Assembly: GCA_036768485.1 (NCBI GenBank) | Contig: JAVLUZ010000191.1 | Coordinates: 434,001 to 498,000, forward strand | From: Mermis nigrescens | Lineage: Eukaryota > Nematoda > Enoplea > Mermithida > Mermithidae | DNA: 64,000 nt | Reading direction: 5' to 3' | In this document: positions 21,027 through 62,647 of the stretch, in pieces | Layout: each line of letters opens with the position of its first letter | Position numbering within the stretch: position 1 is the first letter of the stretch | Position numbers and translations under genes: made by a program | The notes under the pieces: model-generated | Told to the model about the DNA's origin: nothing | Database searches by the model: none | The model's input: only the letters and a program-made list of their open reading frames with translations

Positions 21027-23837
21027 TCACTTAAAATTGTTTTTTTCCTTATTGTTACCTAAATGCTGAATATGGTGACCTATTTTTTCACTCTCACATT
21101 CTAAGCATTCGACAGAAATAGGCTTAGAAGAGGTATTTTTGTGAAATTTATTATTTTTCTCAATTATCCAGTGGTCGTAATGACCAGTAGGCATGTCTTT
21201 AGATTGAGCCCAATAAGTATAATGCATTAAAATCAAGGCCTACTACTGATTTTACTGGTTTTAAGGGGTTCTTCCTGATAAATATTTGGTCTTTAATTGC
21301 CAATCGAGTCATAATTGAAAGACCGCCACACATACTCGATTTTAGCATATAGTAGACATTTTTTGATTTTTCTGAGAAAAGTGAAAATTTAGTGTCAGGA
21401 ATGCTTTTGAAGAGGTACCGTTCTGTGGTTCCCGGTAAGGACATTGCTTCTCTAAAATATCAATTTTAAATCTGTCCCAATACAGCTGCAACATGTTACT
21501 ACAAACTTCTAAGAAGGGAACAACATCCCTCATATTATAGAAAATTAGATAGTCCTTCAATGTAGTCATATCATATTGTTGCCAATACTGCTGGCATTGT
21601 GCATAATCGGCTGTGCTGATGCATTCATCTTTAAGTGAGCTGTAGAATGCTTCAGGAGGCGGTAATTGTGTCTAGGACAATTTTTCAAATGAATAAATAT
21701 TCATAAGGGAATTTGGCTTTTACTAATGTCGCCTTGTATGCTCTCATGAATACGTCTAAGCTAAAACCAAGTGCAACATAAGTACTAACATCGAGAAACT
21801 TAAAAATGCTAGTGGACAAGCAAAGTGTTGACCCGTTTCGTAAAATTGCTTTTGGCCATGTATTGTTTTCAGGATCAGTCCGCACTTGTTGAATGAGTGC
21901 AGGAAATAGATTGCGTTTAATTAAATTTACATCATATTTTCCCGAATTAAATCCGAGACACATAAGTTGAGTGCAATATCTATACAGCTTAGTTTTAGTC
22001 CGAATCAATTTATTGAGTAAGCCTTTTTCTCGTCTACCGTTGGCTTCTTGCTCCTTAATATATGCTTCACTAGTGCTTATTTTTGCATCAAGAGCATCAA
22101 AAACATGTTGAAATGTTGATAAAAGAATGACACTTTGCGCCTTTTGAATTTTTTCCAGATGTTCTAGAAGCCGTTTGACTAAATGATCCGGATTACTGTC
22201 TACAAAACATTGGGGCTGAAAATCCCGGAGCACTTGTATGCATAGCACATGAAATGGGCTGATCTTGAGCAACAAATTTTAACTTTTCAGAAGTTTCTAT
22301 GCATTTTTTACAAGAAGAGCTTCAAAATCGTAAACAGCGAAGAAATTGCAAAAATGTTGCTCATTTTCATTCTGTATTTCATATTCCTGCAATTCCTCAA
22401 AAATCGTTTTCTTCAGCTGATATACTCCACCAGGAAACTTATGTTTTGTTTTGCCATGCCTGCAATGATGTTTTGCATGATCACTCAATTTTTCTGCTTT
22501 TCTAAATAACCGCCTGCACATGAGGCACATGTATCGTTTAGCTTACTGATCAAGATTTATAATGTAACTATAGTGAGCCTGCTTGGAGATTGTGTAAGAA
22601 ATGTCAAGATTTAATAGTTTTTCATACTTTCTAACTACATTCTTCCAACAGACAGCTGCCTCATCCATGTGAAAACACTGAATATCTACCTGAAACAATT
22701 TTTCGATCATTTCTAAATCTGTGTATGGGACGCCAATAAAGGTCTCAACATTTGCTTGAATATTTTCCTTTTTGCAGTATTTGACAAAAAGTTGAAAAAC
22801 GATATCAGGCTCAAAGTTTCCCACAAGACACTGTGCTAAACAGCGGAAAAAGCATAAATTATCATTAAATTTATGACGATTGTTATCTTGAGTCATATGC
22901 AAGGTGTGTCGCTGGTAAGCAGTATTTTCAGAAAGTTCCACATCTGTGCATCCACTCACAAAATCTTTCTGTGGTGTCACAAAAAATTCATCATTGGTTA
23001 TTGCCAGTAGTCCCCATTTAGTGTCAAGGCGAGTAAATTTTCCTTCAACATCAATTTCGTGCAATTTTTCAGCCACATTTTTTACATCATTACCATTGGT
23101 TATAAGAACAGGTTTTCCTAATAGCGTAAAATTATTCTGGCATGCGTACCAATAATTTACTGCACCAGTTTCACGATTTTTGAGGAAACACCCAAGTGCT
23201 GCATCTACTCGGAAAGCTTCCTTTTCATTTTGGAAAATATCGCTCAACATTTCTAGGTAATTTCCAGTTCCCCATCTATAGTTATATGCATGATCCAACA
23301 CATCATTCACAGTTTTATTCGTTCGGATAAGCCGCCAATATCTCCCAACTTCATCCCTAATTTCTTCAGGGTAGGTGGACAAATCTTCAGCAATCATTTT
23401 GTCCTCAGGGATAATTTGAGTAGTTTCAATTTTTTCAATTGGTTCAGTGACAGGATAAGCACGTACTTTTAGGCATTTTTTCATGTGAGTGTCCGAAAAT
23501 AATTCCTTTTTTGAATTGACAGATTGCTAATAAATACATACATTTTGGTACTACATGTTTCACCTCAAAATGAGTAACTAATTTCCTTCTTAATCGGAAA
23601 AGAGTGGCACATGAAGGACATCTAAACCTAGATTCTAAATGCGAAGAATTCTCATGCTCTGCTAACCTGCTTTGACGCGTAAACAATTTATCAGATACAG
23701 TACATTGGTGCAGCTTGCGCTTCAGAAGCTGCGATCAGTTTGAATCGGCACCAAAAAGATTACGGGCGTCTGCCGATGGAGGCTCCTTAGAAGCCCCACT
23801 GAGACCAGTAACACGAGATTTGGCAATATTGGTCATA
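21027..23837 (-). pseudogene. Polinton-type family B DNA polymerase, broken and 3'-truncated
   Basis: Protein-primed-type PolB would replicate the element. The likely start is the ATG at 23837, after which a TGA interrupts at about residue 34. Then follow C2H2 zinc fingers (one near 23650-23715 lacking its second cysteine; one FRCPSCATLF...H....H near 23580-23630; one CLMC...H...HHC near 22460-22530). An NLCFFRCLA block typical of these polymerases lies near 22840-22860. Exonuclease motif I (YDFEALL, about 22310-22335), Exo II (GFNSGKYDVNLI, about 21920-21955), Exo III (YNMRDVVPF, about 21515-21540) and polymerase motif A (GLDFNALYL, about 21215-21240) are all recognisable. Coding jumps frame several times between 21.2 and 23.7 kb. 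Motifs B and C of the palm are absent, so the gene is also truncated. A TCTATAAATA promoter motif lies 49 bp upstream. Confidence 0.85.
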
Positions 23838-23886: not shown

Positions 23887-23896
23887 TATTTATAGA
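23887..23896 (-). promoter_or_regulatory. TCTATAAATA motif upstream of PolB (Polinton 1)
   Basis: On the - strand the sequence reads AAAAGTCTATAAATA, ending 49 bp before the PolB ATG. The same ten bases, with the same A-rich lead-in, precede the major capsid, pVI-like and minor capsid genes of Polinton 2. Probable TATA-type core promoter. Confidence 0.65.
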
Positions 23897-23916
23897 CTTT
23901 TAACCTTCAGTAAAAC

Positions 23917-24978
23917 ATGTTCAGACATGTTCAGGCGTGCCTACCAACATGCCTAACACAACTGTATAAAGGGGCTGCATGCAGGGGATACACTCAACTG
24001 TGTACAGGGGTAGGAAGAGCGGACCCGTGCCTCAGATTTGTTAATTTTTTATCACCAAAACATGTGATGTGTGCCCTCAGAATTATCACTAATTCTTATC
24101 ACTGCATGCAGCGGCGGCTCCCAGGGGCTCCCATAACACGTCAACACATCAAGCGTGTTTTTTATTCATTTGACTTCACATTTTGTTAACACATCACAAT
24201 GCGTTTTCCTGTTTTGCCTATCTTATAACGCAGGATATGTTATAGCATGGGGGACGCCAACCCTATGGCTCCTTCCTCAAGGCCCCTTCATTCCCTTCCC
24301 CTCCACCAAGACTGCCTTCCTATGTACGCTATAGCCTACCTCCATCACTCAGCAAATACGTCACAATGCGTTTTGAACACGTCGCAATGCGTTTAGAACA
24401 CATCAAGTGTGTTTTTCCGTTTTGCCTATCTTATAACATGGGCTATCTTATAACGTTGCGCCCCAGGGTGACAGGGCTAACTACTCGTTTTAATCCTATT
24501 GTAAAAAAATTGCTTTGCTAGTCAACAAAATGCGCCGATAAATTTGTATCATAAAAAATGCTTCAACAATGCGCTTATTATAAATTACAAACAGGCTGCG
24601 CGGCCATCAAAGAGAGCCGCCAGTTGCAAAAAATGCTTCGCCAACGCGTTTATTATTAGTCAGGCTGCCAATGCGCGATATTACCAGCTGCAAAAAATTG
24701 CTTCGCCAAAGCGCAATATGTGTCACTTAGCCAATGTGCGATATTACGATATTACGATTGCGTCACTTAGCCAATGTGCGATATTATGATTTCATCACAA
24801 GCTGCTTAGTCAATGTGCGATATTACTACCTAATTGTGTCTGCTTATTATAATGTTTCAGGGCCCAACAAGCGGGTTAAAAAGTGGTACCCCCGTGTACA
24901 AAAGATAGGCGGACTGTTCCCACGTTATAACATAGCGGTGCCCCTGAAATGCGCTTGCGACCCCCTTTAATACTACTA
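23917..24978. repeat. Tandem-repeat-rich filler between PolB and the capsid fragment
   Basis: Contains repeats of CAATGCGTTTT/CATCAAGCGTGTTT with TTTTGCCTATCTTATAAC (24130-24450). An array of about 41 bp follows around CTTAGCCAATGTGCGATATTA (24725, 24766, 24804 and a diverged unit at 24664). Text resembling the 5.0-kb array (ATGTTATAGCATGGGGG) recurs. No coding remains of the missing Polinton genes are seen. Confidence 0.65.
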
Positions 24979-25272
24979 CCAAACATACACGCTGGGGGCA
25001 TTGAAGTATTGTACATTTACGCAAATATTTTGGAACCACAAATTGTTGGAGAAACTTTGGCTCCCTTGTCAAGAATCGTGAATGTAGAGGGCTCCTATCC
25101 CAACATTATTGACAAAACATTCGACTATCCCCACTATGTCCCTATTCTTGTTAAGGACATTTCGAGTATCGAAATTAACATTAAAGATGATTTAGATGAA
25201 TTTGTTCCGTTTAATTCTGGAAAAGTGATTATCAAGTTACATTTTCGTAAAGTCAAGACTTCGTTTTTCTGA
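24979..25272 (+). pseudogene. Penton-like minor capsid protein, C-terminal fragment (Polinton 1)
   Basis: About 98 codons match the C-terminal third of the intact minor capsid protein at 57558-58343. Shared blocks are EPQIVG, then APL and NVEG/NIEG, then PHY(V/I)P, ending in KVIIKLHF versus KTIIKLHF. The match begins at about 24979 behind unrelated repeat sequence; the N-terminal two-thirds are deleted. In intact relatives this protein forms a single jelly-roll pentamer at capsid vertices. Divergence between the two copies shows that the two elements belong to different lineages. Confidence 0.85.
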
Positions 25273-25274
25273 AA

Positions 25275-25284
25275 CTAATAAATA
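25275..25284 (+). promoter_or_regulatory. TATA-like motif upstream of the TBP-like gene
   Basis: CTAATAAATA ends 28 bp before the ATG of the TBP-like gene, in the 40-bp gap after the capsid stop. It differs by one base from CTATAAATA, the core of the motif in front of the other Polinton genes. Confidence 0.5.
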
Positions 25285-25312
25285 CTCGCGTTTTTATTCA
25301 TTTTTATTCAAA

Positions 25313-25840
25313 ATGGCTACGATTGTGAACGTCGTTTTCACAAGTCGTCTGTCTCGCAAACCCTTAGACTTGTATAAAATTGCAAAAACATGCAAGGGCG
25401 TCAAATACGATCCGAGAAAGTTTAATGGTTTAATTATTAAAATAACGCAGCCAAAGAGTACTGGTTTATTGTTTAGTTCTGGAAAATTGGTTTGTGTAGG
25501 CACAAAGAGCATACACGAAAACAAGCTAGCGAATGAAAAAATGTGCACTTTTTTACAACAGAGCGGCTTTACCTTACAAATTTTTCATTTAAAAGTACAT
25601 AATGTAGTAGGAACGGGTCGAATGAACAGTCGAATAAACATTGCTGGTTTTGCTCGGATGCATTAAAAGTTTGTGCGCCTAGAGCCCGAATTATTTCCGG
25701 CCGCCAAATTAACTTTCCCTCATGCTACGGCTTTAATTTTTACTACCGGTACTGTTCTAATGGTTGGTCTTAAAAGCGAAGATGTCGTTCATAAATTTTT
25801 CAAAAAAGTGCGTTTCATGCTGGAAATGTTTAAGATTTAA
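25313..25840 (+). pseudogene. TATA-binding-protein (TBP)-like gene carried by Polinton 1, one in-frame stop
   Basis: TBP binds the TATA box and nucleates transcription initiation. The frame runs 176 sense and nonsense codons from ATG 25313 to TAA 25838-25840, the length of a bare TBP core, with a single in-frame TAA at 25664-25666. Repeat 1 shows IVNVVFTSRL, YDPRKFNGLIIKI and the stirrup LLFSSGKLVCVGTKS (residues 52-66). Next come FKVHN-type residues (HLKVHNVVGTG). After the stop, repeat 2 shows LEPELFP and ALIFTTGTVLMVGLKS. These are the two symmetric TBP saddle repeats, with Phe37 and Phe54 in the places of the DNA-kinking phenylalanines. There is no N-terminal extension. It is far more diverged than metazoan TBP, which is nearly invariant, so it is not a recent processed copy of the host gene. 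It starts 40 bp after the capsid stop on the same strand. The equivalent place in Polinton 2 has no such gene. Confidence 0.85.
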
Positions 25841-26285: not shown

Positions 26286-27200
26286 TTAAGACAGCACGGA
26301 GCTGTCTGAAGTCAATTCAGTACCGCACAAATTCACAATGGCTGGTCGCTCAATGAAGAAAAAGATAGCTTACAATGAAATCGGATTTTTCGGGATTGCT
26401 TGAATCCTATTGATTATTTCAATGATAAGGAATTTATAAATGTTATGGATTCGACCGAGAAAGTATTTTTTATCTGACCGATTTAATGGCAGATGACTTG
26501 TATAAAACTCGTCGTAATAAGGCCATGCTACTTATTCAGCAAATATTGGTTGCATTACGATATTATGCCACAGGTGCCTTTCAGATTGTCTGCGGCGACG
26601 ACATACTTGTGTCCAAGTCATCGGCTAATCGATGTGTCTGGCAGGTCACAAAGAGCTTATTGAAAAGATGATCTCGATTCATAGAAATTCCCACAGAGGG
26701 CGATGCTGACAAAATAAAGTCAGATTTTCATAAGATCGCCAATTTTCCTGGCGTGTTAGGTTTGGTTGATGGGACGCACATTCGTCTTCAACGGCCTCCT
26801 TTAAATGAAAATGAGTATATTAACAGGAAATTTTACCCATCAGTCAACATGCTGGCAATTTGTGATAACACTGGTCAGTTTTTAAATGTGGTCGCCAAAT
26901 ATACGGGATCGACGCACGACGCCTTCATTCAGTCTCAGTAATCGATGTACAGACAATTTGAAAACGGTCGAGACGATGGATTTATTCTAGGCGATAGTGC
27001 TTATCCCTATAAATCATGGCTTTTAACTCCCTTTCGCGAGCCAATTTCTCATTCTCAAAAAGACTACAATATGTCTCATAAGTAATTATCATTTAGAATA
27101 TTAACTCACGATTCCCATCATGATCTACCGTCATTTATGTACATACATATGTCACAGCGGTTGAGGGTATAAAGCACAGGTTAGCGTGGGGAGGAGGGTT

Positions 27201-57557: not shown

Positions 57558-58343
57558 TTAGGTCATGTTTGTACGCTTGAAATGCAATTTAATGATAGTT
57601 TTTCCAAATTCAAAAGGAACCGGCATATCTTGGTCGGTTTTAACGTTGATTTCAATAGTATTAAATGATTTTTTGAGCACGGGTATATAGTGTGGACTAA
57701 TGTACGAGTGGTTTATTATATCCATATAGGTTCCTTCAATATTTATCACCTGCAGAAGTGGGGCAAAAACATTACCAACGATTTGAGGTTCCACTATATC
57801 ACAATATACATAAAAATTGTGCATTCCGCCTAGCATATCGGGAGAATGGTGGGCAGCTATTGTCAATTCTTGCGCTACCTTATAATTTATGCTAGAGAGT
57901 TGGTCTTCTAGAAATCCCAGCATGTACATTAAATATTTGGTTAATTTTAGGCTCTGAATACGTTCAGTGTTGAGTTTCAGATGACAGAATTTTTCATTAT
58001 CATCATATTGTAAGCTTATATGTTGAGTATAGTCAAATTTTTCATTCGTGCTGACCATTTTTATTCCCTCAGTGATTGTTTTCACAAGATCGTGTATATT
58101 CAAGTATCTGGCGCGAGGAATAAGCATTTTTATTCGGACATTATTTTTAAAATCATAATATTGAATCATGTTCTGATCTTCGGATATATTATTCCAAGTG
58201 TTTGCATAGATTATTTCGGCTAGCCCTACTTCCCAATCCCCATTGAGCATTATGTGTCTAGGCAGCTTTGTAATGAAGGTAGAGGCGGTATTTGATTCTT
58301 GAGAATCGCTCGGAAGCGTCATGTAAAACTGTTTAGGATCCAT
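57558..58343 (-). CDS. Penton-like minor capsid protein
   Basis: The 261-aa product is the single jelly-roll minor capsid protein of Polinton-type virions, expected at the fivefold vertices. Landmarks are GDWEVGLAEI (residues 35-44), a mid-region without cysteine clusters, YVYCDIVEPQIVG (about 178-190), PHYIPVLKK and the C-terminal GKTIIKLHF. The frame is intact and full-length. Its ATG lies 25 bp after a TCTATAAATA motif embedded in the end of the protease gene. It is the last gene before the left TIR, with only about 235 bp of non-coding sequence between. The C-terminal third has a diverged second copy in Polinton 1. The family assignment rests on recognisable motifs and gene order. Confidence 0.85.
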   Translation of the reverse strand: MDPKQFYMTLPSDSQESNTASTFITKLPRHIMLNGDWEVGLAEIIYANTWNNISEDQNMIQYYDFKNNVRIKMLIPRARYLNIHDLVKTITEGIKMVSTNEKFDYTQHISLQYDDNEKFCHLKLNTERIQSLKLTKYLMYMLGFLEDQLSSINYKVAQELTIAAHHSPDMLGGMHNFYVYCDIVEPQIVGNVFAPLLQVINIEGTYMDIINHSYISPHYIPVLKKSFNTIEINVKTDQDMPVPFEFGKTIIKLHFKRTNMT

Positions 58344-58352
58344 GTTTGTTTT

Positions 58353-58772
58353 TCACGTTTTCTCAAAGTATTTATAGATTTTGGGCGTGTGCATAGACTT
58401 AACGACTCTTTTGAATGAAACCCCTTTTGCTCGAAAATGCAGAAAATAGATGCACATATGGCCGCATGATGTAGAAAAAAGACCCTGAACCCGCATATCA
58501 TTGTACGTGTATGTTGTTGCATTTTTGTCAATATATTCTTTGAGCTCAAATGGTTTTTGACCATAACTGTCAAAATAATCACAATGCGATCTACGGTTGA
58601 AGAACATGGCCACCCAGTGTGACCCTGGTTCATTGCTGAAATCCAAATTGGCTATTACTGCAGCAGGGTAGCGGAGTATAGGCGGAAGGCGATCAATAGG
58701 AAAGACGCCCAACAAAATTTTGTTCACAGCAGGATCTGCTTCTAAAACGTGTAGTATTTCAAGTGTGTTCAT
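58353..58772 (-). CDS. Adenain-type cysteine protease
   Basis: 139 aa. Matures capsid proteins of adenovirus-like particles by cutting after short glycine motifs. A catalytic His52 is in GSHWVAMFF, an acidic residue Asp68 in YFDSYG and Cys103 in STSCGHMCIYF, in the order and spacing of the adenain (C5) family. It is shorter than adenovirus protease (about 200 aa) but of the usual Polinton size. It lies between the major and minor capsid genes with a 9-bp gap to the latter. No TATA-like motif is obvious in front of it, so it may be expressed with the major capsid transcript. No defect is visible. Confidence 0.9.
   Translation of the reverse strand: MNTLEILHVLEADPAVNKILLGVFPIDRLPPILRYPAAVIANLDFSNEPGSHWVAMFFNRRSHCDYFDSYGQKPFELKEYIDKNATTYTYNDMRVQGLFSTSCGHMCIYFLHFRAKGVSFKRVVKSMHTPKIYKYFEKT
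58369..58378 (-). promoter_or_regulatory. TCTATAAATA motif before the minor capsid gene
   Basis: Reads AAAATCTATAAATAC on -, 25 bp before the minor capsid ATG and inside the 3' end of the protease frame. Confidence 0.65.
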
Positions 58773-58774
58773 TG

Positions 58775-60064
58775 CTAAGCATTAAAATCATGAAAAATGT
58801 TGCGGTTTTTATCAATCATTATTAAATTATCAAATTCGGCGTATATAATAATTTCTAGTCCAGAATCAGGCACAGCGTCTGCGAACTTGATATTTATACT
58901 TGTTGTTCCTTCGCATACTAGATCCCAATGTCCACTATCATCCGCATCAGGCGTCAGGTCGAACACAAAGAAACAATGACTCGTTTTAAATTCGTCTCTG
59001 CTGATAAAATTACCTTTATTATCATGCCCAATATCAAGCGCGTCGTACATCTGATTAAATGCCTGTATAAACTTATTTTGCTTGAATGACACATTTAGTG
59101 AATGAGTTTGCCCTCCGCATGTTACTTTCACATCATAAATGCTAAAGGGGTTGAAATTGAATGGCGATTTTGACAAACTGCCTCGAAATGCTTTTCCCTC
59201 AACACAAACAAAAACTAAACGTCTTGGCAGCTGGCCTGTAAACAATGCGAAATTGGGCGTTTCCCTAGAAGGATTTGAAATGTGCATATTTGTCATGGCA
59301 ACTCTTCTTATAGGGTATTTGGCAGTATATGTCATCATTGTTTGCTCAAGCGCTAAACTCACACTCTCTAGCACCTCTACTTTCCGAACAAACAATTTCA
59401 TTACTAAAACATTGAGTTCTAGTGGGATATCTTCAAAACACTGTATGACAAAATTATTGCTGTTTCTGTGTAATTCTAGGCGAAAATCTGTGAAATTCAG
59501 CAAATACCTATCTTGAGAGAACAAGTCGATGTGTAAAGGCGCAGATACTTCTACAACACTCGAGTCTTTAAAGAGCGCCGCACGTTCTTTGAACCCTTTA
59601 TTATCGTCAACATTCACATTAGCCCCACCTTCGTGAAAATACAGCGCAGACTGAAGATGAGACAATTTTGCATCAAAACCATAATTTAATTCAGTTTCAA
59701 AATATGCCCTATATGCGTATAAATCGGAGCTGTCAAACACTAATCGACCGCCTAAAAAACACTTGACTTGCTTGAAAAATGTTTTGCCTATAAGGTTGAT
59801 TGGCGCATAATTGGGTAATGCTACGCCTGCTGCAGGTGTTGGTTTTTTAATTCTTAGCGCCATGTAAATATAACTTCTGCTCATTTGCAAATAGTGTGGA
59901 TCGGGTGGGATTCTGAATTTGTAGGGGCCTTCATTTGTTATTGGGTGCATAGGCTGCACTTCATCCCAAAATCCTCTTTTAACAGAAACTTGGGTAGGAG
60001 GGACAGTGAAAAGATCGAGTTCAGATTTCGTACTTGGAATAGATTTTACGTCTATTAGAGCCAT
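58775..60064 (-). CDS. Major capsid protein, F54H12.2-like (predicted double jelly-roll)
   Basis: 429 aa, intact. It belongs to the 'F54H12.2-like' family found in many invertebrate genomes. Its place between the pVI-like and protease genes makes it the major capsid protein of this element. Family landmarks include SELDLFTVPPTQ (residues 14-25), FWDE, a central AKYPIRRV, LFTGQLPRRLVF, SPFNFNPF and the C-terminal YAEFDN..MIDKNRN. A double jelly-roll fold is inferred from the family and context. Its ATG lies 39 bp after TCTATAAATA and 44 bp inside the end of the pVI-like gene, so the two frames overlap. Codon pattern and length give no sign of decay. Confidence 0.82.
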   Translation of the reverse strand: MALIDVKSIPSTKSELDLFTVPPTQVSVKRGFWDEVQPMHPITNEGPYKFRIPPDPHYLQMSRSYIYMALRIKKPTPAAGVALPNYAPINLIGKTFFKQVKCFLGGRLVFDSSDLYAYRAYFETELNYGFDAKLSHLQSALYFHEGGANVNVDDNKGFKERAALFKDSSVVEVSAPLHIDLFSQDRYLLNFTDFRLELHRNSNNFVIQCFEDIPLELNVLVMKLFVRKVEVLESVSLALEQTMMTYTAKYPIRRVAMTNMHISNPSRETPNFALFTGQLPRRLVFVCVEGKAFRGSLSKSPFNFNPFSIYDVKVTCGGQTHSLNVSFKQNKFIQAFNQMYDALDIGHDNKGNFISRDEFKTSHCFFVFDLTPDADDSGHWDLVCEGTTSINIKFADAVPDSGLEIIIYAEFDNLIMIDKNRNIFHDFNA

Positions 60065-60467
60065 TTTTTCGAATTAGTTTTGTAAATGCGTCGTCATTAT
60101 TCATATTTATAGACTTTTGGCGCACGCCCAGCCCCTCACCAGACATAGTCTTGGATGCCTCATCTAAGAATTGCGCCGCCTCATGCTTTGAATGTTCTTT
60201 GGCAGACTGAAATAAGGGTTTTCCCTGCGCCACATCTGATGCAATATTAGCACCAGCCACTAATGCGTGTTTCCCTGCGCTTTTGCCAATAGATCTCAAT
60301 ACAGGCACAGCCATTCTAAATAGTGATTTGAAGAAACTCCCTAATCCGCCACCTCGTTGGTATGGTACGCCTCTATACCCTTCTAGGCCATACCCTGTTT
60401 GTGAGGCTTGTTCTGCGTAATATTGTAGCCAAAGGCCACTGTTTTCAGGATTGAATTGTACATGCAT
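60021..60467 (-). CDS. pVI-like membrane-active minor virion protein
   Basis: 148 aa. After a short N-terminus with aromatic residues (GLWLQYYAEQ) and YQRGGG comes an amphipathic/hydrophobic segment GLGSFFKSLFRMAVPVLRSI (residues 41-60). An alanine-rich helix follows, then a basic tail. The same layout is seen in small proteins next to Polinton capsid genes and recalls adenovirus pVI/pX, which sit inside the capsid. It carries MSGEG (108-112), matching the adenain consensus (M/I/L)XGX-G, so its last 37 or so residues may be cleaved off. Start at ATG 60467; TCTATAAATA lies 40 bp upstream. The function is inferred from layout. Confidence 0.65.
   Translation of the reverse strand: MHVQFNPENSGLWLQYYAEQASQTGYGLEGYRGVPYQRGGGLGSFFKSLFRMAVPVLRSIGKSAGKHALVAGANIASDVAQGKPLFQSAKEHSKHEAAQFLDEASKTMSGEGLGVRQKSINMNNDDAFTKLIRKNGSNRRKIYSKYEI
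60104..60113 (-). promoter_or_regulatory. TCTATAAATA motif before the major capsid gene
   Basis: Reads AAAAGTCTATAAATATG on -, 39 bp upstream of the major capsid ATG and within the pVI-like frame. Confidence 0.65.
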
Positions 60468-60507
60468 GTTTTTTGATTGTATTATTTTTTTGCTTAAACA
60501 TTTCTAC

Positions 60508-60517
60508 TATTTATAGA
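60508..60517 (-). promoter_or_regulatory. TCTATAAATA motif before the pVI-like gene
   Basis: Reads AAAATCTATAAATAG on -, 40 bp upstream of the pVI-like ATG. The TAA stop of the 188-aa gene lies within it. Confidence 0.65.
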
Positions 60518-61077
60518 TTTTCTTCATCCCATGAAAAGTCGCCTTCAGGTGCCACTGCGCTCCTCCGTTTCTTATTAGCTATACTCTCAAGTGGGGCGTT
60601 CGAACGTTGAAGGGCCCTAGCCAACTCTTTTGCACCAATTGCAGTGGGTACGGTTTTACGATCACGCGTGAAGTCATGAACCAAATCAACAATATTTGAT
60701 CCATATATTTTTTGACCATCAATCACAATCTCACCCGATGGTTCAATGTCTATACTAGGATCATCATTAACATGCTGTAATAGCAGTTTTGCGTTTGGCT
60801 GTAAGGTTTTTGGAATACCAGCTATAATTTCTTTGCTTCCAATTGATTTGTGTGGACCTAGAATAGTTAGCTCATACGGTTTCTTACGCTGTTCCTGCAA
60901 TCGGCCAAACTTGCTCAAAATTTGGTTATACTTTATCATTTTCAAGCCTGATGATGAATGTTTGTCGCTTAAAATCTTGTACATCTCCCGATCCAGGGCG
61001 TTTAATACTTGATCTAGTGGTTTACTTTGTTCAGCAATATCTGCTGGCACCAAAACTAGTTTTTCTGTGTGCTTCAT
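60511..61077 (-). CDS. Conserved Polinton virion-associated protein, 188 aa
   Basis: No enzymatic domain. The central part (ILGPHKSIGSKEIIAGIPKT, then LLLQHVNDDPSIDI, then IYGSNIVDLVHDFTRDRKTV) has the layout of a protein that recurs beside capsid genes in Polinton/adintovirus-type elements: a helical N-terminus, an 'IPKT' block, a 'GSNIVDLV' block and a basic C-terminus. The role is unknown, perhaps a core or scaffolding protein. The frame is intact. Its start overlaps the stop of the 116-aa gene by 4 bp, so the two are tightly packed. Confidence 0.6.
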   Translation of the reverse strand: MKHTEKLVLVPADIAEQSKPLDQVLNALDREMYKILSDKHSSSGLKMIKYNQILSKFGRLQEQRKKPYELTILGPHKSIGSKEIIAGIPKTLQPNAKLLLQHVNDDPSIDIEPSGEIVIDGQKIYGSNIVDLVHDFTRDRKTVPTAIGAKELARALQRSNAPLESIANKKRRSAVAPEGDFSWDEENL

Positions 61078-61424
61078 TTCTTGCCTATAATCGCTTCTGC
61101 TAGTAAACTACCTACAACTGATAGAATAGGTGTCAATAAGAGAGGTAAAAAACCACCGTTCTGAATTATTAAATATTTTTTGCGTTTAGTACTTGCACAC
61201 TTATTCTTTGCCAAATATCTTATATGTGATTTATATCGCTTCAGTCTGTGAATATCTTTATCAGTGAAAGGAATGTTGCCGTTTAGAAAATTGTTTGCGC
61301 AATCGCAAATACATAAGATTTGGTCTTTACTAGCATTATTTATAAGCGCATCGCGTTGGGGTTTTCTTGCAATACTTAACAAATGTAGACAACTAATGTT
61401 TCGTTTTAGTCTTTGAGGAGCCAT
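61074..61424 (-). CDS. Small basic protein with hydrophobic tail, 116 aa
   Basis: Basic N-terminal two-thirds including ILCICDCANNFLNGNIPFT and a K/R-rich run (KCASTKRKKYLI), followed by GGFLPLLLTPILSVVGSLLA at the C-terminus. Small proteins of this composition with a GGF-hydrophobic tail accompany Polinton capsid genes. It may coat DNA or act as a membrane/minor core protein, but the function is unknown. The frame overlaps the start of the 188-aa gene by 4 bp and the end of the ATPase remnant by 32 bp. A weaker TATA-like CTATACATA lies about 30 bp upstream. Confidence 0.6.
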   Translation of the reverse strand: MAPQRLKRNISCLHLLSIARKPQRDALINNASKDQILCICDCANNFLNGNIPFTDKDIHRLKRYKSHIRYLAKNKCASTKRKKYLIIQNGGFLPLLLTPILSVVGSLLAEAIIGKK

Positions 61425-62090
61425 TTTTGTAATTTTCAGTTAGATCATTATGCATATGTATAGTTTTTGGCACATAAAATGTAGGATGTTTGCTGAAAAT
61501 ACTCGTTTTCAACCTGTGTAAATCATCTGCATTTTGTGTCAGATCAATGAACAAGTACCCATGTGGCCTGGAGGTAGCATCAACATATACTTCAAGAAAA
61601 TATTTAGTATTAGTAGGGTATAAATGATGCGATAAAATATGTGATTGCAGTTGATCTGCTGGGTTTTTGAATAGAACAATATAATCAGAATTGATGCGCG
61701 AGGTACGAAGGCCATCGTCAAATAGATTTTGCACAATTTTTATTACACTAATGTTCCAATGATGTCAACCACGAGTGAATAATTGTATAATTTCATGATT
61801 TCCTCTACTTTCGTGCATCAGATCATCAAGGACTATCAGCTGGGGTACATGACTTTTTTCTTTGATGATGCTAAAATCTGGCAAGCCTTTATTAAAAATT
61901 ACATTTTTCATTTTATTGTACATAAGCTGTTCTTCACTTTAAAACCAGTAGATTTTATCAATTTTTGTATTAATTATTCTTTCTCTATTTTCAATAAGTT
62001 GCTCATCAAATGTTTTTTTCCTGATTTTGTTGGACCAGAAACAGTGCATGTAAATGGGTGTTCCATTTCTAAAATGGTTTTCAACACAGT
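61393..62090 (-). pseudogene. FtsK/A32-like genome-packaging ATPase, broken
   Basis: Would pump DNA into the capsid. Walker A-like GPTKSGKK lies at 62013-62036; the usual Ser/Thr after the lysine is Lys here, which should abolish nucleotide binding. Walker B LIVLDDLM lies at about 61818-61844. The C-terminal part (61393-61734) has the family's GYLFIDL block. Between Walker A and B there is a frameshift and an in-frame stop. Another stop follows Walker B near 61770. Upstream the frame runs into a 21-bp minisatellite. Length and motif order fit Polinton ATPases (about 230 aa). Confidence 0.85.
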
Positions 62091-62122
62091 TTCAGCATCA
62101 GTATTTATAAACTTTCCAAACT

Positions 62123-62392
62123 CTGCACTCTTTTTCTCGAAACTCTGCACACTTTTTCCGAAAATCTGCACACTTTTTCTGAAACTCTGCACACTTTTTC
62201 CGGAACTCTGCACACTTTTTCCGAAACTCTGCACACTTTTTCCGAAACTCTGCACACTTCCTATATTATAACGTGTAAAAAATGTTACAAACTCTGCACA
62301 CTTTTTTCAAAACTCTGCACACTTTTTCCGAAACTCTGCACACTTTTTCCGAAACTCTGCACACTTTTTTTCCAAACTCTGCACGCTCTTTA
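62123..62392. repeat. 21-bp minisatellite (GAAACTCTGCACACTTTTTC)
   Basis: About twelve units of 20-22 bp, interrupted by a unique stretch at about 62255-62290. Several units are exactly 21 bp, so on - they encode the heptad SFGKSVQ in frame with the ATPase Walker A. The repeat has replaced or extended the 5' part of the ATPase region. Confidence 0.92.
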
Positions 62393-62647
62393 GATCAAAA
62401 TAGTTGACATAGATGAGGTGATGTGCTCATCGATATTTTTTGTGAAAACATTTGCAAAGTAAAACTTAGCTTCTGGACTTAAAAATTCCCATAACTTGAA
62501 TAACACACATAGATCTCCTCTTTTAAGGCGTTTTCTGATGTACTTTGAGAAGCCTAAAGCAGCATTCTCATAAAGTTCCAACAATGCTTGCCTATAATGA
62601 TTGCTCATTTTTGGCCAAAGATAACCCCCAATTGCATCATTAGACAA
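62390..62647 (-). CDS. Unrecognised 85-codon frame in Polinton 2
   Basis: Open frame with mixed aromatic and basic residues (for example GYLWPKMSNHYRQALLELYE) that looks protein-like, but I do not recognise it. It ends just where the minisatellite begins and reads in the same direction as the virion genes. It could be a small element gene or part of a longer one cut by the repeat. Confidence 0.35.
   Translation of the reverse strand: MSNDAIGGYLWPKMSNHYRQALLELYENAALGFSKYIRKRLKRGDLCVLFKLWEFLSPEAKFYFANVFTKNIDEHITSSMSTILI

What the first reader, a model, noticed from the sequence alone, without database searches (positions are those of the whole stretch)
24979..25840. A Polinton-borne TATA-binding-protein gene
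A 176-codon frame with both TBP saddle repeats (LLFSSGKLVCVGTKS; ALIFTTGTVLMVGLKS) starts 40 bp after the minor capsid gene of a Polinton, same strand, at the position where Polinton 2 has nothing. It is intron-free, has no N-terminal domain, and is much more diverged than animal TBP, which argues against a recent host retrocopy. TBP homologues are known in some large DNA viruses. I know of none described for Polintons.
Basis: partly seen in the sequence, partly recalled or inferred. Interest (0 to 1): 0.93.

Follow-up and report, generated by a model that had tools for sequence, protein, structure and literature searches.

The report
Virus-like transposons carrying TATA-binding-protein genes
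Polintons (virus-like giant transposons) in a worm genome carry many copies of their own version of the cell's basic promoter-binding protein, and many of their genes share a promoter signal, which suggests that they run their own transcription start step; the copy in this window is a broken remnant of that family.

Summary
Confirmed, with one correction. The frame at 25313-25837 is a two-repeat TATA-binding protein (TBP) gene, 43 bp after a minor-capsid gene fragment, but it is not intact: an in-frame TAA (25664-25666) splits it and the capsid gene is truncated. It is no chance retrocopy. Two searches of the host assembly (very probably the nematode Mermis nigrescens) gave 300 rows of Polinton-type TBP, 217 without a stop in the match. 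85 of 150 relatives of the window type lie directly behind a minor-capsid hit. Other subfamilies have TBP beside the packaging ATPase or polymerase. On the main tree the TBPs form two clades apart from 17 sampled eukaryotic TBPs. DNA-bending phenylalanines and TFIIB-contact glutamates are nearly all kept. An AAGTCTATAAATA box precedes many Polinton genes (2,212 copies genome-wide, control 79); none of 12 TBP genes has the GTC form. Best reading: a Polinton-encoded general transcription factor serving the element's own promoters. Gene identity and association are solid; the role is inferred. My searches of the held library listed no Polinton TBP; two key papers are not held. Side finding: p53-response-element-like arrays before some of these promoters.

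The parts
25313..25663 (+). TBP gene, first half (repeat 1 and start of repeat 2)
   Evidence: PF00352 4.3e-24; 58% identical over 176 aa to the TBP of L015/L016
25664..25666 (+). in-frame TAA that breaks the TBP frame
   Evidence: translation; the genome search lists this copy (C101:459313-459837) with 1 TAA
25667..25837 (+). TBP gene, second half (rest of repeat 2), same frame
   Evidence: PF00352 7.7e-08
24979..25269 (+). C-terminal fragment of a Polinton minor-capsid gene
   Evidence: 85.6% identity to residues 154-250 of the 250-aa protein of L015/L016; named by its place after MCP and protease in those loci, fold not confirmed (one search failed)
25270..25312 (+). 43-bp gap between minor capsid and TBP; 74 of the 85 class-D junctions counted have gaps of 42, 45, 46, 50 or 57 bp
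23889..23897 (-). GTCTATAAA box about 60 bp before a putative start of the minus-strand gene
   Evidence: also found (C101:457889-457922). Two such boxes in the window are not more than chance on their own (0.76 expected)
23913..23942 (.). three tandem RRRC(NN)GYYY ten-mers, p53-response-element-like
   Evidence: strict pair 23913-23932: 1 found, mean 0.01 expected; third, imperfect ten-mer
21342..23836 (-). broken minus-strand gene (several frames); looks polymerase-like by eye, unproven
   Evidence: frames; no Pfam match over cut-off and no match to a class-B Polinton polymerase
57561..62306 (-). second Polinton remnant: minor capsid, protease, MCP, small genes, broken ATPase; no TBP match
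   Evidence: protease PF00770 22.1 bits, over cut-off
60106..60114 (-). GTCTATAAA box just before the MCP frame of the second Polinton

Best explanation
Polintons of this nematode genome carry a TBP gene as a regular, selected gene. The window holds a decayed copy of the subfamily in which TBP follows the minor-capsid gene. SHOWN: the family is large, is found in Polinton gene clusters, shows purifying selection where it could be measured, is distinct from host TBP, and nearly always keeps the residues that bend DNA and contact TFIIB. SHOWN: many Polinton genes of all six classes examined have an extended TATA box (AAGTCTATAAATA, or ...AAAAG) whose GTC form the TBP genes lack; most TBP genes have TATATA instead. 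INFERRED: Polinton TBP is made first from its own, host-like promoter, binds the GTC-TATA boxes, recruits host TFIIB and RNA polymerase II, and so switches on structural and other genes of the element.
Against: No expression, binding or transcription data. The box was found by eye in the set on which it was then counted, and starts of four genes there were moved to internal ATGs that homologues share. 22 of 35 non-TBP genes lack the GTC form. 4 of 12 TBP genes have a TATAAATA or TATAAAAG without GTC, so the promoter split is not clean; two have no TATA[AT]A in the stretch. In the window alone the box is not enriched (2 found, 0.76 expected; 15 of 100 shuffles as many). Only 13 of the first 100 genome sites lie within 5 kb of a listed TBP hit (lists capped). 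A Polinton remnant without TBP (window Polinton 2) still has the box, so host TBP may read it. Position T124 is V, L or I in classes A-D, and E93 is changed in 22 of 24 rows, so affinity could be altered. The window copy is broken.
Confidence: 0.6

Rival explanations
1. Chance retrocopy or ordinary host TBP duplicates that happen to lie near Polintons.
For: Intron-free frames; this copy is broken; 53 of 150 class-D hits had no listed minor-capsid hit within 2.5 kb (capped list; the window copy is one of these).
Against: 85 of 150 in a tight junction with a capsid gene; 27-48% identity between classes; on the main tree apart from host and all 17 eukaryotic TBPs put on it; low dN/dS.
Confidence: 0.02
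2. The Polinton TBP is a competitor or dominant negative that weakens host transcription, or titrates host TFIIB, rather than an activator of Polinton promoters.
For: TFIIB-contact residues kept while E93 of the N-terminal stirrup is changed in 22 of 24 rows.
Against: DNA-bending Phe kept, and many Polinton genes have a common TATA-like box.
Confidence: 0.13
3. The AAGTCTATAAATA box is read by host TBP; Polinton TBP serves another step, for example steering integration (as TFIIIB steers Ty3, recalled) or Pol III-type transcription.
For: Box present in a Polinton remnant without TBP (window 60106); in class C the TBP gene lies next to the integrase gene.
Against: No integrase frame was found beside class D or F TBPs in the loci read; TFIIB contacts kept.
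Confidence: 0.2
4. One ancient capture with later gene shuffling, instead of two captures, explains the two TBP clades.
For: One clade is not rejected (p-AU 0.47); all Polinton TBPs on one side of a weak branch (64/62); class D with eukaryotic TBPs as one clade is also not rejected (p-AU 0.43).
Against: Classes C and D share a capsid lineage (MCP 58%, ATPase 64% identity, the latter over 115 residues) but carry TBPs of different clades (39%) at different places; D branches with eukaryotic TBPs 91/89.
Confidence: 0.4

Closest known systems
Polinton/Maverick elements
   Same: A32-like ATPase, DJR-like MCP, adenovirus-type protease, rve+chromo integrase and viral family B polymerase in loci with TBP genes
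   Different: a TBP gene; [quoted passage not shown]
Mirusvirus TBP
   Same: virus-encoded TBP, in 59% of mirusvirus genomes of PMC10132985 (passages); also a core function in PMC12768974 (passage)
   Different: large viruses of unicellular eukaryotes with HK97-type capsids; I had no identified mirusvirus TBP on the tree
TBPs on IMG/VR contigs
   Same: two-repeat TBP on a viral contig (12 loci)
   Different: the five put on the tree lie with archaeal TBPs; no Polinton frame of the 20 loci matched the 12 loci except TBP
Cellular TBP and TBPL2
   Same: two-repeat saddle, intercalating Phe, TFIIB contacts
   Different: 36-48% identity for the 120 best hits of one class-D TBP, no N-terminal domain, separate clades

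Membership tests
TBP (PF00352) | two saddle repeats | tested here: met
   both halves of the window frame over the Pfam cut-off; open relatives too
TBP (PF00352) | four DNA-intercalating Phe and TFIIB-contact Glu pair | tested here: met
   exceptions: Tyr for the fourth Phe in three class-A rows, a deletion in L027
TBP (PF00352) | saddle fold | tested here: met
TBP (PF00352) | binds TATA DNA and supports Pol II initiation | not testable with these tools
   needs bench work
Polinton | rve integrase with chromodomain | tested here: met
   L013, PF00665 2.1e-11 and PF00385 2.8e-09, both over cut-off
Polinton | viral-type family B DNA polymerase | tested here: met
   L011, L012: PF03175 1.1e-19 and 4.3e-19
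Polinton | DJR major capsid protein | tested here: inconclusive
   L015 MCP matches PF21738 at 4.1e-4, 20.1 bits, below the cut-off of 27; L014 MCP, 58% identical, has no match
Polinton | A32-like packaging ATPase | tested here: inconclusive
   L014 Pox_A32 22.7 bits, just below the cut-off of 22.8
Polinton | adenovirus-type protease | tested here: met
   window Polinton 2, PF00770 22.1 bits, over cut-off; L014 20.4, below it
Polinton | minor capsid (single jelly roll) | tested here: inconclusive
   position only; the model had pLDDT 34.5
Polinton | terminal inverted repeats and target-site duplication | not tested
   loci were pieces of at most 10 kb and whole elements were not assembled; inverted repeats were not assigned to element ends
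Polinton (window copy) | intact element around the TBP | tested here: not met
   TBP stop, capsid truncated, no MCP/ATPase/integrase match beside it

The most novel reading that the evidence does not exclude
These Polintons run a stress-triggered two-step cascade in an animal nucleus: the host's p53-family protein switches on early promoters (p53-like arrays before some TBP genes and before some GTC-TATA boxes), the Polinton TBP is made, and it then directs Pol II to the element's own AAGTCTATAAATA promoters. This would be an animal-transposon analogue of prophage induction followed by a viral initiation factor.
Probability: 0.2. Interest if true: 0.93.

Novelty: new variant of a known kind. 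Interest (0 to 1): 0.82.

Why it matters
Polintons are generally taken to rely on the host's transcription machinery in the nucleus (recalled). A Polinton family that carries its own TBP, in hundreds of copies, together with a recurrent TATA-type box, would be the first I know of with its own initiation factor, and makes the open question of how and when Polintons are expressed testable with one purified protein and one short DNA. It also gives TBPs that branch apart from the eukaryotic ones sampled here, and shows a TBP gene gained or swapped more than once by small virus-like elements.

Tried and rejected
Chance retrocopy: rejected. Relatives in IMG/VR: four single-sequence scans confirmed none; the profile scan gave 12 loci without other Polinton matches. 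MCP scan of IMG/VR: 366 stretches, none confirmed. Minor-capsid fold from a single sequence failed. Window minus-strand gene as a polymerase: not supported. The idea that class D uses TATAAAAG and the others TATAAATA was dropped: the box before the window's minus-strand gene reads TATAAATA. Host TBPL1/TRF was not searched for. An attempt to see upstream of two class-B polymerase genes did not reach their starts. The ATPase/TBP junction count for class C did not complete.

Relatives in protein collections: 5 of 132 proteins tested (hits) score clearly better against Polinton TBPs than against host, human and Arabidopsis TBP; P0135, the top hit, joins class D on the tree; the other 119 listed hits were not tested that way. 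They come from sources labelled jgi and lgn, on contigs of 956-2,138 bases, without visible neighbours. Whether they come from another species is open: I tried to compare P0135 and P0024 with this genome, but the machine did not answer.

Rows dropped: broken TBP frames of L017, L020 and L022 left out of trees (L020 is); L011 trimmed to 170 aa, L019 by its first 22 aa; long viral and divergent eukaryotic rows dropped (with them, the deep order was unresolved); EUK_P0008 dropped. One search used 47 of the 49 distinct strings; one search repeats it with all.

Full report
OBSERVATION. The frame at 25313-25837 translates into both TBP repeats but has a TAA at 25664-25666. The two halves match PF00352 at 4.3e-24 and 7.7e-08. 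It begins 43 bp after a frame whose last 97 residues are 85.6% identical to a minor-capsid protein of open relatives. Gene and place are as described, but the copy is a relic.

HOST. The window lies in a 523,963,438-base assembly of 860 contigs. Contig C81 is 2,429,002 bp long, exactly the N50 printed for the Mermis nigrescens assembly (524,220,005 bp, 867 scaffolds; passages of PMC10989877). Mermis is a mermithid nematode, described there as an insect parasite. The identification is an inference from these numbers. The host's own TBP is split over introns and its core matches human TBP with 309 bits; on the tree it pairs with a nematode TBP, 98/94.

COPIES. A PF00352 search returned 150 rows, all that were scored out of 2,553 first-look candidates. 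A class-C query gave 150 rows at 72-100% identity, 137 without a stop in the match. A class-D query gave 150 rows at 53-100%, 80 without, the window copy among the rest at 58% with 1 TAA. Stops were counted by hand. The lists are capped, some rows are partial, and some stops may lie past the true end. The neighbours of most of these rows were not read.

CONTEXT. I read 20 ten-kb loci chosen to span the score classes (not random). Named Polinton hallmarks (MCP, minor capsid, ATPase, protease, integrase or polymerase, by Pfam or by clustering with such a frame) occur within 5 kb in 13: L011-L017, L019, L023-L025, L027, L028; L009, L010, L020 and L021 have only conserved small Polinton ORFs; L018, L022 and L026 have none (Pfam). 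Recurrent arrangements: class C, TBP divergent from the ATPase, about 45 bp away, with the integrase beyond; class D, TBP directly behind minor capsid at the end of the ATPase-to-minor-capsid row (the window keeps only the minor-capsid end of it); class B, TBP before an F-box gene and the polymerase. For class D, 85 of 150 TBP hits have a same-strand minor-capsid hit ending within 150 bp upstream, 12 at 151-2,500 bp and 53 none in a capped list of 150 (the window copy is one of the 53); gaps are 57 (19), 50 (17), 42 (17), 45 (16) and 46 (5) bp, others single; a crude chance rate per hit is 3e-5.

RELATIONSHIPS. Classes are 27-48% identical to each other. In the tree with 9 archaeal and 17 eukaryotic TBPs (plants, fungi, algae, animals, TBPL2), Polinton TBPs form two clades: one with classes A, B, C and F (99/97) and class D (99/98); the 17 eukaryotic TBPs are one clade without them (96/89) (earlier trees 51, 52). 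'Apart' assumes a root on the archaeal side. A single origin is neither shown nor rejected (p-AU 0.47). Classes C and D share capsid ancestry (MCP 58%, ATPase 64%) while their TBPs are 39% identical, fall in different clades and sit at different places: TBP was gained or exchanged more than once. Five proteins from sequence collections join the large clade and P0135 joins D; whether they come from other species could not be tested. Long branches are a caveat for deep placement.

PROMOTER BOX. Reading upstream sequences by eye showed AAGTCTATAAATA, or AAAAG at the end. GTCTATAAA is within 120 bp upstream of 13 of 35 non-TBP Polinton genes (simulated mean 0.05), at least one in each of classes A, B, C, C2, D and F, and of 0 of 12 TBP genes; TATATA is before 8 of 12 TBP genes (one a TA repeat) and 5 of 35 others; TATAAATA or TATAAAAG without regard to GTC is before 24 of 35 others and 4 of 12 TBP genes. 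The set was chosen by me, and four starts were moved to internal ATGs shared by homologues. In the 20 loci the box occurs 28 times, in none of L018, L020, L022 and L026, against 0-5 in 20 simulations. In the window it is not enriched (2; 0.76 expected). Genome-wide AAGTCTATAAATA occurs 2,212 times against 79 for the reversed pattern. Of the first 100 sites listed, 14 neighbouring pairs are 404-411 bp apart, close to the spacing of the boxes before K5 and MCP in L014 (410) and L023 (413). Some of the 100 are short-period tandem arrays; only 13 lie within 5 kb of a listed TBP, while 8 of 15 listed TBP hits on those contigs have a site within 5 kb.

P53-LIKE ARRAYS. RRRC(NN)GYYY ten-mers in tandem stand shortly before the TBP genes of L019 and L026, and one half-site before that of L020; L018, L019, L020 and L026 have further pairs farther upstream. 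Strict pairs: 2 in the 20 loci against 0 in 20 simulations; 1 in the window against 1 in 20 simulations or 0.01 expected. GAACATGT followed after 5-35 bp by GTCTATAAA occurs 68 times against 4 for the reversed pattern; in the 49 distinct strings the next ten-mers are in phase in 23 (+10) and 19 (+20), and in at most 2 at any other offset up to 25. Shared descent inflates this. The host has p53-family coding matches (three PF00870 stretches close together on C61). That p53 reads these sites is untested.

LITERATURE. Full-text searches for Polinton or Maverick with TATA-binding protein, TBP, promoter motif, TATA box and nematode listed no paper whose listing or passages that I saw describe a Polinton TBP. 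I saw listings, and passages of PMC10675990, PMC10132985, PMC8097293, PMC11071308, PMC10989877 and PMC12768974; PMC11464507 and PMC12085832, which hold both 'TBP' and 'Polinton', and PMC7786948 were seen as listings only. Papers on nematode polinton polymerases and on adintoviruses are not held. Absence from print is therefore not shown.

VERDICT. A real, large, apparently selected Polinton gene family, with a recurrent promoter box on many Polinton genes; the mechanism is plausible and untested.

Noticed in passing
window 23913-23942; L019, L020, L026 upstream of TBP; 68 places genome-wide: Tandem p53-response-element-like ten-mers before some Polinton promoters; the host has p53-family coding matches.
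   Followed up: partly
L011, L012, L017, L021, L025: F-box genes (Pfam-tested in L011 and L025; the others by clustering) beside TBP in class B/F Polintons.
   Followed up: no
window 61974-62393: In the second Polinton a repetitive stretch lies where class C has the ATPase start and TBP.
   Followed up: no
L028:4390-4815: AT-hook protein gene directly before TBP (PF02178, 20.1 bits, over cut-off).
   Followed up: no
window 26340-27090: Stretch that looks by eye like a broken transposase gene beside the remnant.
   Followed up: no
L021, L025: Two TBP frames within one 10-kb piece, perhaps nested or neighbouring elements.
   Followed up: no
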